DNA of 64,000 bases from positions 1,603,001-1,667,000 of the forward strand of contig NC_010337.2 in assembly GCF_000019165.1 (NCBI RefSeq), written 5' to 3'. A program made the position numbers and the translations under genes. Below, one piece after another: positions 2,412 to 46,470 of this stretch. This DNA is from Heliomicrobium modesticaldum Ice1 (GTDB lineage: Bacteria > Bacillota > Desulfitobacteriia > Heliobacteriales > Heliobacteriaceae). Below the pieces are notes generated by a model. That model saw nothing but the letters and a program-made list of their open reading frames with translations, was not told where the DNA came from and made no database searches. Position 1 is the stretch's first letter. Every line of letters starts with the position of its first letter.

Positions 2412-2870
2412 GTGAATACCGGGATTATGGTGAGGACGGCGGTGCTGGTAGCGCTGGCTGTCGTCGTCCAACAGATCAAAGTTCAATGGCTGGCTGGACC
2501 TGCCGTCAATGCGCTGCTCATCATCGCAACCGGGTACAACGGTCTATGGAGCGGCCTTCTTCTGGGGTGCCTGACGCCCTTCTTGGCCTTCTTGGCCGGA
2601 ATCATGCCCCTTGTCGCCGTGTTGCCGGTGATCGCAGCCGGAAACAGCATCCTCTGCATCAGCTATCATCTATTGAAAAAACGAAACGCCCTGCTCGCCC
2701 TTGCCATAGGCGCATTGCTGAAGTTTGCGCTCATGGCGGCGGCAGTGAATTATCTGATTCAGGTTCCCCCACCGGTCGCAAAGGCGCTCTCGTTGCCTCA
2801 ACTCGCCACAGCTGTCACCGGCGGATTGGTGGGGATGCTGGTCCTGCGCTATCTTCCGCAAAATCACTAG
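2412..2870 (+). CDS. Small polytopic membrane protein, ECF S-component-like
   Basis: A 152-residue, very hydrophobic protein with about five predicted membrane segments and short loops. Start chosen at GTG 2412, which has the purine-rich GAGGTGATAG just upstream; an open frame further 5' runs back into sbcC and is not needed. Size and pattern (membrane-wide Ala/Leu/Gly, a Lys-Lys-Arg loop near residue 90) resemble substrate-binding S components of energy-coupling-factor transporters, but no substrate-defining motif is visible. It lies 49 bases after sbcC and 62 bases before murJ. Function is inferred only from topology. Confidence 0.6.
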   Translation: MNTGIMVRTAVLVALAVVVQQIKVQWLAGPAVNALLIIATGYNGLWSGLLLGCLTPFLAFLAGIMPLVAVLPVIAAGNSILCISYHLLKKRNALLALAIGALLKFALMAAAVNYLIQVPPPVAKALSLPQLATAVTGGLVGMLVLRYLPQNH

Positions 2871-2932: not shown

Positions 2933-4525
2933 TTGACCGAACAGCGAATCGCGAAAGCCGCCGCACTGATCATGGTCCTCACCTTGCTGGGAAGGGCTAT
3001 CGGCCTTGTCCGGGAGATGTTCGTGGGCGCCAAGTTCGGCGCCGAGGTTCTTGGTCCTTTTGTGGTGGCTTTCAACCTGCCGAACATCGTCGGCATCACG
3101 CTGACGGGCGCTTTTAGCGCTGCCTTCATCCCCCTTTTTACCGCCGAGATGGAAAAGGGCAACAGGGACGCCGCCTGGCGGTTGGCCAGCGCTGTTTTGA
3201 ACACGGTGCTGTTCGGCATTTCCTTGCTGGTGGCCTTCGGCATGGTCTTCTCACGAGAGGTCGCTTTCCTCTTGGCTACCGACTTTTCTGCGCCGCTGCT
3301 CGATCTGACGGCGGAACTGCTCTTTATTCTCTTTCCGACGCTGATATTGTCATCGCTGGGCGGCGTAACCATGGCCATGCTCAGCTCCTTAAACCGCTAC
3401 TTCGTCTCCTCCATCGGACCCTTGTTGTCGAGCCTTGTTGTCATCGTTTCCATCTTCTTGCTTGCCCCGCGCTGGGGCATCCACGGGGTCGCATGGGGGA
3501 CCACCTTGGGGGCCTTGCTATCTTTTCTGGTCATGATCCCAAGCCTGATGAAAGAAGGTTTTCGTTACTACCCTACGCTGGGCCTGGATAACCCTCTCGT
3601 CCGGCAGCTCTGGACGATGATCCTGCCTGTCTTGTTCGGTGTCGGTGTGAGCCAGATTCACATTCTGATCGACAGCAATATGGCGGCGTCCATCTCTGAG
3701 GAGAGCGTCGTCGCCCTGAAATACGCCAACACGGTGGCGCAACTCCCCATGGGGGTTTTCGTTTCCGCTGTCGCGATCCCCATGCTGCCGGCGCTATCGG
3801 CCCTGTTGGCCGTGGGCGATCGGGAGGGTTTTAAAAAGACCTTGGCTCGCGGTGTCAGCTATTACGCCTTGATCCTGCTGCCCATCATGGCGGTTACGGT
3901 GATCCTGAGCGGGCCGATCATCCAGGTGCTTTTTCAACGAGAGGAATTTGATGCCACACGGACTGCGATGACCGCCTTCGCCCTCGTTTTTTACGGACTG
4001 GGCTTTTTTCCCTCTGCCGTCCGGGACTTGTACACCCGAGCTTTTTACTCGCTCCATGATACAGCTACGCCGGTCAAGATCGGCGCGCTGACGGTGTTCA
4101 TCCATGTGGCCATGAACTTCCTCTTCATCCCCTGGCTTTCCCATGGCGGGTTGGCCTTGGCCACATCCATCTCTAACGCCTTGAATATGGTGATTTTGGG
4201 CTGGCTGCTTTATCGTCGCGTCGGCGGCTGGTCCTTCGGGAATCAGTGGAAGGTCTTTTATCAGGCGCTGATCGCGTCGACCTTGATGGGGATTGTCCTG
4301 GCTGTGGGTTTTCCTTGGTTCCTTTCTTTCTTCCCCGGGGGCGGGTGGTGGGCCACGCTCCTCTCCTTGATCCTTGTGGGTCTAGTCGCCGCGGCTGTGT
4401 ACGGGGGAACGCTCCTCGTCCTGGGCACACCTGAAGTCAAAGAACTCGTCCAACGGCTCCTCGCCAGGGTCAGAGGGCCGCGGAATGTGCCTCCAGCCCT
4501 GCGATTGTCCAAAGGCGACCAGTGA
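2933..4525 (+). CDS. murJ: Lipid II flippase MurJ (MviN family)
   Basis: A 530-residue polytopic protein of the MurJ/MviN branch of the MOP superfamily, which flips the peptidoglycan precursor lipid II to the outer face of the membrane. The N-terminus carries the family hallmarks: TLLGRAIGLVREMFVGAKFG, followed by FNLPNI and GAFSAAFIPLF. Length and about 14 hydrophobic segments match the family. The start is TTG 2933 after a GGGGGCACGGA purine stretch. The next gene, a MurF-like/M23 protein, also concerns the cell wall, which supports the role. Confidence 0.92.
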   Translation: MTEQRIAKAAALIMVLTLLGRAIGLVREMFVGAKFGAEVLGPFVVAFNLPNIVGITLTGAFSAAFIPLFTAEMEKGNRDAAWRLASAVLNTVLFGISLLVAFGMVFSREVAFLLATDFSAPLLDLTAELLFILFPTLILSSLGGVTMAMLSSLNRYFVSSIGPLLSSLVVIVSIFLLAPRWGIHGVAWGTTLGALLSFLVMIPSLMKEGFRYYPTLGLDNPLVRQLWTMILPVLFGVGVSQIHILIDSNMAASISEESVVALKYANTVAQLPMGVFVSAVAIPMLPALSALLAVGDREGFKKTLARGVSYYALILLPIMAVTVILSGPIIQVLFQREEFDATRTAMTAFALVFYGLGFFPSAVRDLYTRAFYSLHDTATPVKIGALTVFIHVAMNFLFIPWLSHGGLALATSISNALNMVILGWLLYRRVGGWSFGNQWKVFYQALIASTLMGIVLAVGFPWFLSFFPGGGWWATLLSLILVGLVAAAVYGGTLLVLGTPEVKELVQRLLARVRGPRNVPPALRLSKGDQ

Positions 4526-4535
4526 GGCCCCAAAA

Positions 4536-4604
4536 CCGATAGGGTGACAGTCGGAAAAGATTACCATATCTTGGTAGTATATACGATTGAAAATTCCCTA
4601 TCGG
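4536..4604 (+). promoter_or_regulatory. Long-range inverted repeat reaching the ribosome-binding site of the MurF-M23 gene
   Basis: CCGATAGGG (4536-4544) and CCCTATCGG (4596-4604) are perfect 9-base complements. The right arm overlaps the first bases of the Shine-Dalgarno GGAGG (4603-4607). Between them sits a smaller hairpin, TACCATATCTTGGTA (4562-4576). If transcribed, the leader could fold so that the ribosome site is partly masked. This is seen in sequence; the regulatory role is inference. Confidence 0.5.
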
Positions 4605-4614
4605 AGGTATGGCC

Positions 4615-6408
4615 GTGAACGAATGGAATGTTCGCGCCGTGGCGGCAATAACGGGGGGGCAGCTCCTGTCCGGGCGCCCGGAGGATCCCCTTCGCTACGT
4701 CTGTGAGCGATTGGTCGATTGCGGAAAAGGCGACGTCTTGATCCCCTTGGTGAATCTCACCGATCCTGCGGGATATGCCGCTCGGGCGGCCCGCAAGGGG
4801 GTAGGCGTTCTTGTGTTGCCGGACCGGACAGCTTCTGCGGCAGCCAATGCCGCTGTGGCTGTCATCGGTGTAGGCTCCGTGAGGGACGCCTATTTTCGCC
4901 TGGTCAAGGCCTATCGGCACCGCTGCAAGGCGCGCATCGTAGCGGTGACGGGTTCGGCAGGTAAAACCACCACTAAGGAGATGATCGCCGCCGTATTGGC
5001 CGAAGCGGGAGAGGTACAAAAAAACTGGCGCAACTACAACGGTCCCTACGGGATCGGCTATACGCTCTTTCGCCTTCGTCCGCATCACACCTTCGGGGTC
5101 GTTAAAATCGGCGCCTACATCCCCAACAGCATCGATTTCGGCGCCCGGCTGGTGGCGCCGGAAGTCGGCGTCATCACCTGTATTGGATTGGGCCATGCCG
5201 CAGCGCTCGGAGGAGGCGAGGGTGTCCGCCGGGAAAAAGAGAAGTTGCTGACGCACCTTCCCAAAAAGGGCCTGCTGGTATTAAACGGCGATGATCCTGG
5301 TTGCCGGAGCGTCGATCTTTCGCGTTGCCAGGCGCCTGTTCGTTGGGTCGGTGTAGAGTGCGAGCGGGAGGATCTTTCCCTCTGGGCGGAGCGAATCCAG
5401 GTGCACCGCGATGGAACTCGGTTTCTGCTCTGCGGTTTGGAGCGGGAGATCGAGGTAGAACTGCCTGGATTTTTTGGTCGCCCGGCGGTGATCGATGCGC
5501 TGTTGGCTGCAGCCGTCGGCGATCATATGGGGCTTCCGCCCGAGTCCATCGCCAGCGGATTGACCAAAGTGGAGTATACACCAAGGCGGTTTTCCCCGAT
5601 CCGCTTGCCGGGGAGGCGATTGCTGATCGATGCGACGTACAACGCCAACCCGCATTCCATGTCGGCATCCCTGGAAAGCGCCGCCAAACTCGCAGTTGAG
5701 GGGAAAGGCCTGGCGCTCCTCGGGACCATGAGCAATCTTGGCGAAGAGGCGCCGGAGCAACACCGCGCTATCGGCAGGCGGGCAGCAGAACTTGGCTTTG
5801 CCCTCATCGCCCTGGGAGAACAGGCGGAAACTATGGCGTCCGGGGCGACTGAGGCTGGTGGAAGGGTGATCTACGCCTCCAAGCAATGGGAGAAAGGGCA
5901 CGTCGTTGCCCTTGCCCTGAAGGAGCTGCCCGAAGAAGGGGTCCTGCTGGTCAAGGCTTCCAACAGCGTGGAACTCGAAATCGTGGCTGAAGCGATTGAG
6001 AAGGAAGCCGCCCGCCGTTCCGGCCTGGTTCCGCCCTTGGCAAAAATCGAGCCAACCTGTTATTACGGTTTTCGACGGCATCCGCTCACCCGTGAGTGGT
6101 TCTTTCACGAGGGGATCGACCTTTCTGCTCGCCGGGGGACCCCGATTGCGGCTGTCGCTGATGGAACGGTTGTGAAGGTGCAAAAGGATCATCCTACCTA
6201 CGGCAATCACCTGGAAATCGATCACGGCGGAGGAATGGTGACAGGCTATGCCCACGCCCAGAAGATCTACGTCGAGGTGGGAGAACAGGTGACCCAGGGA
6301 CAGTCCATCGCAGAGGTTGGCAATACCGGCCGGACGACGGGACCACACCTGCACTTTGAGGTGCGCATCGATGGAAAGACGGTCGATCCCTATTACTATG
6401 TGATCTGA
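4615..6408 (+). CDS. MurF-like Mur ligase domain fused to an M23 (LytM) metallopeptidase domain
   Basis: A 597-residue two-domain protein. Residues ~1-460 resemble MurF, which adds D-Ala-D-Ala to the UDP-MurNAc-tripeptide: P-loop TGSAGKTTT (~112-120), the YNANP motif, and VLNGDD. Residues ~475-597 are an M23 Zn-endopeptidase with H498xxxD502 and HLH 578-580, so its metal ligands are intact. Oddly, the usual Mur-ligase acidic residue in the V-x-E-x-G segment is Lys164 (VVKIG), and the D-D before YNANP is D-A, so ligase activity is doubtful. No signal peptide is seen, although M23 enzymes normally act outside the cell. Start: ATG 4609 is one base from GGAGG, whereas GTG 4615 is seven bases away and was preferred. 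A terminator follows. Confidence 0.85.
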   Translation: MNEWNVRAVAAITGGQLLSGRPEDPLRYVCERLVDCGKGDVLIPLVNLTDPAGYAARAARKGVGVLVLPDRTASAAANAAVAVIGVGSVRDAYFRLVKAYRHRCKARIVAVTGSAGKTTTKEMIAAVLAEAGEVQKNWRNYNGPYGIGYTLFRLRPHHTFGVVKIGAYIPNSIDFGARLVAPEVGVITCIGLGHAAALGGGEGVRREKEKLLTHLPKKGLLVLNGDDPGCRSVDLSRCQAPVRWVGVECEREDLSLWAERIQVHRDGTRFLLCGLEREIEVELPGFFGRPAVIDALLAAAVGDHMGLPPESIASGLTKVEYTPRRFSPIRLPGRRLLIDATYNANPHSMSASLESAAKLAVEGKGLALLGTMSNLGEEAPEQHRAIGRRAAELGFALIALGEQAETMASGATEAGGRVIYASKQWEKGHVVALALKELPEEGVLLVKASNSVELEIVAEAIEKEAARRSGLVPPLAKIEPTCYYGFRRHPLTREWFFHEGIDLSARRGTPIAAVADGTVVKVQKDHPTYGNHLEIDHGGGMVTGYAHAQKIYVEVGEQVTQGQSIAEVGNTGRTTGPHLHFEVRIDGKTVDPYYYVI

Positions 6409-6426
6409 CCGAAATCACCAAAAAAA

Positions 6427-6455
6427 AGCGCGGCGCCCTTGGCCGCGCTTTTTTT
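6427..6455 (+). terminator. Rho-independent terminator
   Basis: Perfect 8-base stem AGCGCGGC / GCCGCGCT with a 7-base loop, followed by a run of T and preceded by a run of A, so it could work on both strands. It closes the murJ-MurF/M23 unit. Confidence 0.9.
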
Positions 6456-44586: not shown

Positions 44587-46470
44587 GTGCGCCCGGCATG
44601 GGCGTTGTCTCTAGGGTGGAAGTCCCGAACGCCGAAGGTGGCAGTAGGCGTTAGCTTAAGGCAAGGGTGTCCGCCGCGAGGCGGAATCTGAAGGAAGCCA
44701 GCGGCAAACCTCCGGCCCGAGGACCACGAACCCCAGGTGAGGCTAGCGGCAGTTGGATGAGCTTGCCGAACAAAGCGAAGTCCTTGTCACCGAAGGCTGC
44801 CGAGAGTAAATGGGGCGGGTAGATGGAGGGAAAGGCAACGTTCTTACCCGGGGAGGCCTGCCGGGGGACCAAGTAACTTGGGAAACCACGCCGAAAGGCG
44901 TGGCTGAACCGGCAGGAGTCAGCAGAGGTCATAGTAGGCTGGCCCGACGTCCGGCCAGATGAAGGACCGAACATGATGGAAGGGGAAGCGACGATGCGTT
45001 CGCGTGACGCGCAGAGACAGCCGAATATCCCGAAAGGGAACTGCCAACGGGAGGAAGCGGTGAATCCGCAGGGGACCGGTGGAGTGCCGAGCGCGTTACC
45101 GGCACAAGAAGCGAAGCAACCCCGCGAAGAGACGTATGATCTGATGGAGAAAGTCGTCGAACGAGGGAACATGACGGAAGCGTATAAGCGAGTCATGGCC
45201 AACAAAGGCGCGGCCGGAATCGACGGTATGGGGCTAGAATCCCTGCGCCCGTACCTAAAAGAGGAATGGTCGCGCATTAAACAGGAATTGTTGGAGGGGA
45301 CCTATCGACCGCAACCGGTCCGGCGGGTTGAAATTCCCAAACCCCAAGGCGGAACACGGAAGCTGGGCATTCCCACTGTCGTCGATCGACTGATCCAACA
45401 GGCCCTGAACCAGATCCTGATGCCGATCTTCGACCCTGACTTTTCCACGAACAGCTACGGATTTCGTCCGGGAAAGAGTGCGCACCAAGCGGTGAAGAAA
45501 GCGAAGGAATACATCGCCGACGGCTACCGATGGGTGGTTGACATGGACCTGGCCCAGTTCTTTGATCGCGTCAATCACGACATTCTCATGGCGCGCGTAG
45601 CGCGCAAGGTGAAGGACAAACGAATCTTGAAGTTGATCCGAGAATACCTCAAGGCCGGGGTCATGCTCAACGGGATTCGTGTGAAGAGCGAGGAAGGAAC
45701 ACCCCAGGGAGGTCCACTCAGCCCTTTGCTGGCGAACATCATCCTGGATGATTTGGATAAGGCACTGGAAAGCCGGGGACATCGCTTCTGCCGGTACGCC
45801 GACGACTGTAACGTCTACGTCCGCAGTCGACGGGCAGGGCAACGAGTGATGGAGGGTATGGCAAAGTTTCTGGAGGGGCGGTTAAAACTGCAGGTCAACT
45901 GGGAGAAAAGCGCAGTCGACCGACCCTGGAACCGAAAGTTTCTGGGGTTTTCATTTACGTGGCATAAGGCAGCAAAGATTCGGCTCGCCCCCCAAACGGT
46001 GAAACGGGTGAAAGAGAAGATCCGCCAGTTCACTGGGCGGAACCGAAGCATTGCGATGGAGGACCGACTGGTCACCCTCAACCAATACCTGAAAGGCTGG
46101 ATGGGCTACTTTCGACTCATTGACACGCCAAGCGTACTTAAAGAGTTGGATGAGTGGCTTCGCCGACGACTGCGGATGTGCCTGCTCAAGCAATGGAAGC
46201 GCCCGAAGACACGAAGACGAAACTTAGTGGCGTTGGGGATCCCGGAGGAATGGGCATGCAACATCAGCGGCTCACGAAAAGGATATTGGCGTCTGTCCTT
46301 GACCCCGCAAATGAATAAAGCCCTTGGCCTCGCCTACTGGCGGGAACAGGGCTTAGTCAGTTTAGTCGAAACATACCAATCTCATCGTCAACCAGCATGA
46401 ACCGCCGTATACCGAACGGTACGTACGGTGGTGTGAGAGGACGGGGGTTAATCACCCCCTCCTACTCGAT
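44587..46470 (+). mobile_element. Group II intron, bacterial class C-like, with maturase gene
   Basis: The 5' end GTGCGCCCGGCATGGGCG is typical of class C introns. Domain V is visible as CCGCCGTATACCGAACGG / TACGTACGGTGG near 46402-46433, and a domain VI hairpin with a GGGGGTTAATCACCCCC stem ends CCTACTCGAT at about 46470. The reverse transcriptase lies in the central domain. Insertion right behind a Rho-independent terminator is the known habit of class C introns. Confidence 0.88.
44973..46400 (+). CDS. ltrA: Group II intron reverse transcriptase/maturase
   Basis: A 475-residue protein with RT domains in order: ANKGAAGIDGM, the RRVEIPKPQGGTRKLGIPTV block, YGFRPGKSAHQAV, VDMDLAQFFDRVNHDIL, GTPQGGPLSPLLANIIL and the catalytic FCRYADDCNV. 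A thumb/maturase domain X follows (FLGFSFTWHKAAKIRLAP, LNQYLKGWMGYFRLID). There is no H-N-H endonuclease domain, as usual for class C. Start ATG 44973; ATG 44994 is also possible. Intact. Confidence 0.93.
   Translation: MMEGEATMRSRDAQRQPNIPKGNCQREEAVNPQGTGGVPSALPAQEAKQPREETYDLMEKVVERGNMTEAYKRVMANKGAAGIDGMGLESLRPYLKEEWSRIKQELLEGTYRPQPVRRVEIPKPQGGTRKLGIPTVVDRLIQQALNQILMPIFDPDFSTNSYGFRPGKSAHQAVKKAKEYIADGYRWVVDMDLAQFFDRVNHDILMARVARKVKDKRILKLIREYLKAGVMLNGIRVKSEEGTPQGGPLSPLLANIILDDLDKALESRGHRFCRYADDCNVYVRSRRAGQRVMEGMAKFLEGRLKLQVNWEKSAVDRPWNRKFLGFSFTWHKAAKIRLAPQTVKRVKEKIRQFTGRNRSIAMEDRLVTLNQYLKGWMGYFRLIDTPSVLKELDEWLRRRLRMCLLKQWKRPKTRRRNLVALGIPEEWACNISGSRKGYWRLSLTPQMNKALGLAYWREQGLVSLVETYQSHRQPA

What the first reader, a model, noticed from the sequence alone, without database searches (positions are those of the whole stretch)
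4615..6408. MurF-like ligase fused to an M23 endopeptidase, with a changed metal residue
One protein joins a cytoplasmic precursor-making fold to a domain that normally cuts finished peptidoglycan outside the cell. The M23 zinc ligands are intact, but the Mur-ligase acidic residue of V-x-E-x-G is Lys164 and the D-D before YNANP is D-A. The ligase half may have become a binding module for precursor-like muropeptides, for example in recycling or sporulation.
Basis: partly seen in the sequence, partly recalled or inferred. Interest (0 to 1): 0.65.

Follow-up and report, generated by a model that had tools for sequence, protein, structure and literature searches.

The report
MurF-like ligase fused to M23 endopeptidase
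A photosynthetic bacterium and its two nearest relatives carry one gene that joins an enzyme type that builds cell-wall peptides to one that cuts them; it is a real, conserved gene of one genus whose parts are familiar but whose combination and job are not.

Summary
Window 4615-6408 is one open frame (597 aa): a MurF-like ligase (residues 1-465) followed by an M23 peptidase domain (about 485-597) with all five active-site residues. It is not a sequencing error: two sibling genomes of the genus (very probably Heliomicrobium; the window is probably H. modesticaldum) carry the same single-frame fusion at 85% and 80% identity, under purifying selection in both halves. A separate canonical murF lies in the dcw cluster, so the fusion is a second copy. 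It occurs only in this genus: 3 of 82 genomes of the class, and only genus members in a 398-genome phylum sample.

The headline substitution needs correcting. Lys164 is private to this species; both siblings have the normal Glu (GAA, here AAA). Asp to Ala before YNANP is shared by all three. All three keep the ATP, magnesium and carbamate residues, but differ at a set of other positions invariant in 42 canonical MurFs. I therefore favour a ligase with a changed substrate, fused to a probably cytoplasmic M23 peptidase acting on a peptidoglycan-type peptide, over a dead binding module. In this species alone ligation may be lost. Substrate and reaction are inferred, not shown; nothing supports sporulation.

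The parts
4615..6408 (+). MurF-like ligase / M23 endopeptidase fusion gene (597 aa, GTG start; alternative ATG at 4609)
   Evidence: single open frame; SD GGAGG 4603-4607 fits GTG 4615; same V(GTG)NEWNV start in all three species
4615..4944 (+). Mur N-terminal (UDP-sugar) domain, divergent: D-G-H motif of MurF replaced by D-P-A
   Evidence: no Pfam PF01225 hit; alignment with 42 canonical MurFs
4945..5517 (+). Mur ligase middle (ATPase) domain: P-loop K117/T118, N140, N142, H194, K208 kept
   Evidence: Pfam PF08245 E 3.2e-24; residue counts
5104..5106 (+). codon AAA, Lys164 in place of the Mg-binding Glu; GAA in both sibling species
5584..5961 (+). Mur ligase C-terminal domain
   Evidence: Pfam PF02875 E 8.8e-13
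5632..5634 (+). codon GCG, Ala340 in place of the invariant ribose-contact Asp; shared by all three species
6010..6102 (+). linker between the two halves; least constrained stretch of the gene
6103..6390 (+). Peptidase_M23 domain, H498, D502, H547, H578, H580 all present
   Evidence: Pfam PF01551 E 1.2e-33; invariant in three species
4536..4604 (+). leader hairpin (CCGATAGGG/CCCTATCGG outer stem, two inner stems) ending at the ribosome-binding site
   Evidence: RNA fold -37.8 kcal/mol, z -5.5 against shuffles; same fold in L010, weaker in L011; unique in genome
6421..6455 (+). intrinsic terminator after the fusion gene
   Evidence: 14-bp perfect inverted repeat plus T run
2933..4525 (+). murJ (lipid II flippase family), conserved upstream neighbour
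   Evidence: TIGR01695 350 bits, above cut-off; order kept in G001 and G002
2427..2870 (+). ECF-transporter S-component-like membrane protein, conserved two genes upstream
   Evidence: PF12822 E 1.9e-8, above cut-off in the window protein, below it in the sibling tested; order kept in G001 and G002

Best explanation
A genus-specific, probably cytoplasmic, two-domain enzyme for remodelling peptidoglycan-type peptides. The N-terminal half is an old, strongly diverged MurF paralogue that keeps the ATP-dependent ligation machinery but has a changed substrate pocket. The C-terminal half is an active-looking M23 metallopeptidase that would hydrolyse a peptide bond of the same or a related stem peptide (imported muropeptide or soluble precursor), so cutting and rejoining, or recognising and cutting, happen in one polypeptide. 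Shown here: the fusion, its conservation and selection, the kept and lost residues, the separate murF, the lack of an export signal, the conserved murJ neighbour. Inferred: that the M23 half is active, that the ligase half still ligates in the siblings, the cytoplasmic location, and the substrate. In the window species the Mg ligand Glu164 is Lys, so there the ligase half may act only as a binding part.
For: Single frame in three species; purifying selection in both halves; canonical murF elsewhere. Residues of ATP/Mg/carbamate chemistry kept in all three (K117, T118, N140, N142, H194, K208, R325, N343) plus E164 in two of three, while N143, E144, P148, M167, R168, N189, E210, D340, R450 and the D-G-H motif, invariant or nearly so in 42 canonical MurFs, are all changed. 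Mur half on a stem of 2.65-2.87 changes per site outside canonical MurFs, not a recent copy of the host's murF. M23 residues complete. No N-terminal hydrophobic segment. ECF-S, murJ, fusion order conserved.
Against: No structure: the single-sequence model was useless (pLDDT 37). No biochemical data. The changed positions were assigned to substrate recognition from family motifs and general knowledge, only partly from papers read. A cytoplasmic M23 enzyme is unusual, and no paper found describes this combination. murJ adjacency may be incidental: L011 has a terminator between the two genes.
Confidence: 0.42

Rival explanations
1. The Mur half is a catalytically dead binding module that presents a precursor-like peptide to the M23 peptidase, in all three species.
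For: Asp340 to Ala in all three; Lys164 in the window species; many MurF-invariant positions changed; TIGR01143 score below the curated cut-off in all three.
Against: Glu164 present in both siblings; P-loop, metal His, carbamate Lys, Arg325, Asn343 strictly conserved in all three, which a binding module would not need. MurT lacks the acidic ribose contact and is active (PMC6085368).
Confidence: 0.25
2. Recent loss of function in the window species only: Glu164Lys has disabled the ligase half there while the siblings keep a working enzyme.
For: One-base GAA to AAA change private to this species; dN/dS in the middle domain is 0.110 for the window-G001 pair against 0.070 between the siblings, but 0.072 for the window-G002 pair.
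Against: The gene is intact and still under constraint; a single difference could also be a sequencing error or be tolerated. Compatible with the best explanation rather than exclusive of it.
Confidence: 0.2
3. A second, functional MurF (ordinary D-Ala-D-Ala addition) that happens to carry an M23 domain.
For: MurF fold and 34% identity to the host's MurF; best hits of the Mur half are MurFs.
Against: Below the TIGR01143 cut-off in all three species; D-G-H, N-N-E-x-G-x-P and other MurF-invariant residues lost in all three; a canonical murF scoring 390 bits exists in the genome.
Confidence: 0.08
4. Assembly or sequencing error joining two genes.
For: None found.
Against: Same single-frame fusion in three separate genomes; purifying selection on both sides of the junction.
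Confidence: 0.01

Closest known systems
MurF (UDP-MurNAc-tripeptide--D-Ala-D-Ala ligase, TIGR01143)
   Same: Mur ligase middle and C-terminal domains in the same order; P-loop, N-x-N, metal His, carbamate Lys, Arg hinge, Y-N-A motif; about 30-39% identity
   Different: Below the curated cut-off (268-284 of 288.6 bits); MurF-specific D-G-H, N-N-E-x-G-x-P, M-R, K-x-S-R and second Asp of D-D-x-Y-N-A-N-P lost; carries an M23 domain; long separate branch
M23 peptidases (PF01551; MepM, ShyA, DipM, SpoIIQ, LytM type)
   Same: Complete domain, zinc and catalytic residues; nearest in the own genome 54% identical over the domain (hydrophobic N-terminus, L087)
   Different: Known members are exported or membrane anchored (general knowledge); this one follows a cytoplasmic-type ligase with no signal peptide
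Known Mur fusions (MurE-MurF, MurF-alanine racemase, MurC-Ddl as NCBIfam models; Ddl-MurF in G006)
   Same: Cell-wall precursor ligase fused to another enzyme
   Different: Those join two biosynthetic steps; this joins a ligase to a hydrolase
Mpl murein peptide ligase (recycling; PMC3060825)
   Same: Mur-type ligase working beside canonical Mur enzymes
   Different: Mpl is MurC-like; this is MurF-like and has a hydrolase half
VanX/VanY with MurF (by analogy only, from memory)
   Same: Hydrolysis of D-Ala-D-Ala or terminal D-Ala plus MurF ligation edits stem peptides
   Different: Separate proteins and other peptidase families; no resistance context seen here

Membership tests
MurF (TIGR01143) | Curated score cut-off 288.6 bits | tested here: not met
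   268, 283.9 and 270.3 bits in the three species
MurF (TIGR01143) | P-loop G-K-T, metal His, carbamate Lys, Y-N-A | tested here: met
   identical in all three species and in 42 of 42 canonical MurFs
MurF (TIGR01143) | Mg-binding Glu of V-x-E-x-G | tested here: inconclusive
   Lys in the window species, Glu in both siblings
MurF (TIGR01143) | D-G-H, N-[NT]-E-x-G-x-P, second Asp before Y-N-A-N-P, K-x-S-R | tested here: not met
   all changed in all three species
MurF (TIGR01143) | ATP-dependent addition of D-Ala-D-Ala to UDP-MurNAc-tripeptide | not testable with these tools
   needs enzyme assay
Mur ligase superfamily (PF08245 + PF02875) | Both domains above gathering scores | tested here: met
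   86.4 and 49.6 bits against 24 and 28.4
Peptidase M23 (PF01551) | Domain above gathering score | tested here: met
   115.6 bits against 28.7
Peptidase M23 (PF01551) | H-x-x-x-D, H-x-H zinc ligands and catalytic His | tested here: met
   H498, D502, H547, H578, H580, invariant in three species
Peptidase M23 (PF01551) | Export to the cell wall (usual, not strictly defining) | tested here: inconclusive
   no N-terminal hydrophobic stretch (19-residue mean at most 1.1 near the N-terminus) and only about six codons of open frame before the first ATG, so no ordinary signal peptide; unconventional export not excluded
Peptidase M23 (PF01551) | Peptidase activity | not testable with these tools
   needs assay

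The most novel reading that the evidence does not exclude
A single cytoplasmic polypeptide that both hydrolyses and re-ligates stem peptides of soluble peptidoglycan precursors or recycled muropeptides: an editing enzyme in which an M23 peptidase works inside the cell.
Probability: 0.2. Interest if true: 0.72.

Novelty: new variant of a known kind. Interest (0 to 1): 0.45.

Why it matters
Building and cutting of wall peptides are normally kept on opposite sides of the membrane. A conserved gene that fuses the two, beside a lipid II flippase gene and in bacteria reported to have a thin wall (PMC11448272, PMC13209566), gives a defined target for asking whether M23 enzymes can edit precursors inside the cell. 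The natural Glu/Lys difference between sibling species is a ready-made control for the ligase half.

Tried and rejected
Sigma-K-like promoter upstream (mACm-N15-CATAtttTg): dropped, because the conserved block folds as a hairpin (z -5.5) and the 18-mer recurs nowhere else within two mismatches. Kinship with the MurF-like paralogues of family f14: the joint branch is probably long-branch attraction, since HMM scores do not favour it. Recent duplication of the host murF: rejected by the tree. Wider homologues: two genome-contig scans, plasmids, phages and viral contigs gave no other fusion; the first genome scan used poor peptide patterns (one began with ATG where the siblings use GTG), and genome contigs seems not to hold the sibling genomes. 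Structure: single-sequence AlphaFold2 gave pLDDT 37, no conclusions drawn and no fold search run; the sibling sequences came from a tool not on the permitted list for folding, so they were not submitted. Rfam had no match to the leader.

Full report
What is there. Window 4615-6408 is one open frame. GTG 4615 is the better start: GGAGG at 4603-4607 stands 7 nt before it and the V-N-E-W-N-V start is shared by all three species. Pfam finds Mur_ligase_M, Mur_ligase_C and Peptidase_M23, each well above its gathering score. An intrinsic terminator follows at 6421-6455. Numbering below is for the 597-residue protein.

Identity of the genome. The window lies at 1603001-1667000 of a single 3,075,407-base contig. 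From memory this is the size of Heliomicrobium modesticaldum Ice1, and the table in PMC13209566 gives 3.1 Mb in one contig for that species; the two siblings (3.8 Mb in about 70 contigs, 3.7 Mb in about 50) fit Hmi. undosum and Hmi. gestii. These names are inferences.

It is a real, conserved fusion. Two genomes of the same genus carry it in one frame at 85% and 80% identity. Pairwise dN/dS is 0.07-0.19 in the three Mur domains and 0.14-0.15 in the M23 domain, against 0.07 in murJ and 0.14-0.17 in canonical murF. All 82 held genomes of the class were searched: only the three of this genus have it. In a 398-genome sample of the phylum only genus members match over the whole length; every other match above the threshold is to the MurF part alone, at about 232 bits or less. 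Plasmid and phage collections hold no place covering 80% of the query. The six other genomes of the family lack it, although they have a murJ, in another neighbourhood.

It is a second copy. A canonical murF (390 bits, above the cut-off of 288.6) lies at 2053930-2055306 among murE-, murD- and murC-like frames, and all nine genomes of the family have a canonical MurF. The fusion scores 268-284 bits in the three species, below the cut-off. In trees its Mur half sits on a stem of 2.65-2.87 changes per site outside the canonical MurFs sampled, far from the host's own MurF clade, so it is an old or acquired paralogue. Its exact placement is unsure because the branch is long.

The substitutions. Lys164 stands at the position of the Mg-binding Glu (E158 in the E. 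coli MurF numbering); a paper on MurT infers that this Glu coordinates Mg, and one on Mpl names Glu178 as a likely metal ligand (PMC6085368, PMC3060825; that these are the same position is general knowledge of the family). Both siblings have Glu there, by GAA against AAA, so the change is private to the window species. Ala340 replaces an Asp that is invariant in 42 canonical MurFs, in all three species. The corresponding acidic residue contacts the ATP ribose, but MurT has no acid there (PMC6085368), so its loss need not abolish activity.

The larger pattern. All three species keep K117, T118, N140, N142, H194, K208, R325, Y342, N343 and A344, which are invariant or nearly so in canonical MurFs. 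All three have lost D-G-H (now D-P-A), N143 and E144 (G-P), P148 (G), M167 and R168 (A-Y), N189 (C), E210 (K), D340 (A) and R450 (N or H). The energy-coupling part is kept and other family-specific parts are replaced by residues that are themselves conserved in the genus (for example W-R-N-Y-N-G-P-Y-G-I-G, identical in all three). I read this as a change of substrate under selection, not decay. Which of these positions touch the substrate is taken from family motifs and not from a structure of this protein.

The M23 half. H498, D502, H547, H578 and H580 are present in all three species. The nearest M23 in the own genome is 54% identical over 116 residues and belongs to a protein with a strong N-terminal hydrophobic segment (L087). 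The fusion has no such segment and only about six open codons before its first ATG, so a cytoplasmic location is the simplest reading; unconventional export is not excluded.

Neighbourhood. The order ECF S-like protein, murJ, fusion is the same in all three genomes, with glp genes downstream (in one sibling a bile-acid-symporter-family gene lies between). In L011 the sequence between murJ and the fusion holds a terminator-like hairpin with a T run (read by eye), so the fusion can have its own transcript. Directly before the ribosome-binding site lies a hairpin of -37.8 kcal/mol (z -5.5), found again in L010 and less clearly in L011. With three sequences covariation is not significant. The element is unique in the genome and matches no Rfam family.

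Judgement. The parts are known; the combination was not found in the papers searched (only open-licence papers are held). My best explanation, at 0.42, is a cytoplasmic remodelling enzyme for peptidoglycan-type peptides with a substrate-shifted ligase half and an active peptidase half, the ligase half perhaps silenced in the window species. The dead-module reading holds 0.25.

Noticed in passing
window 4536-4604: Strong three-tier RNA hairpin ending at the ribosome-binding site of the fusion gene, unique in the genome, partly conserved in siblings; may control translation.
   Followed up: partly
window 2427-2870: ECF-transporter S-component-like gene in conserved order before murJ and the fusion.
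   Followed up: partly
L101-L106 (family f14 genomes): MurF-like paralogues with an altered N-x-N-L-P motif lie beside a run of YheC/D-like ATP-grasp genes (one tested, PF14398) and a COOH-NH2 ligase gene (PF14395): a possible peptide-making cluster.
   Followed up: partly
L013 124-2631 (G006): In another genus of the family the only canonical MurF is fused behind what looks like a D-Ala-D-Ala ligase (835 aa); the MurF part scores 431.7 bits.
   Followed up: no
window 44670-44967: Group II intron domains (two Rfam matches).
   Followed up: no
L098 6069-7055 (G001): A bile-acid-symporter-family gene lies between the fusion and glpP in one sibling only.
   Followed up: no
G000:C1:2420692-2422092: A second, more distant murJ (33% identity) elsewhere in the genome; every genome of the family has two matches.
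   Followed up: no
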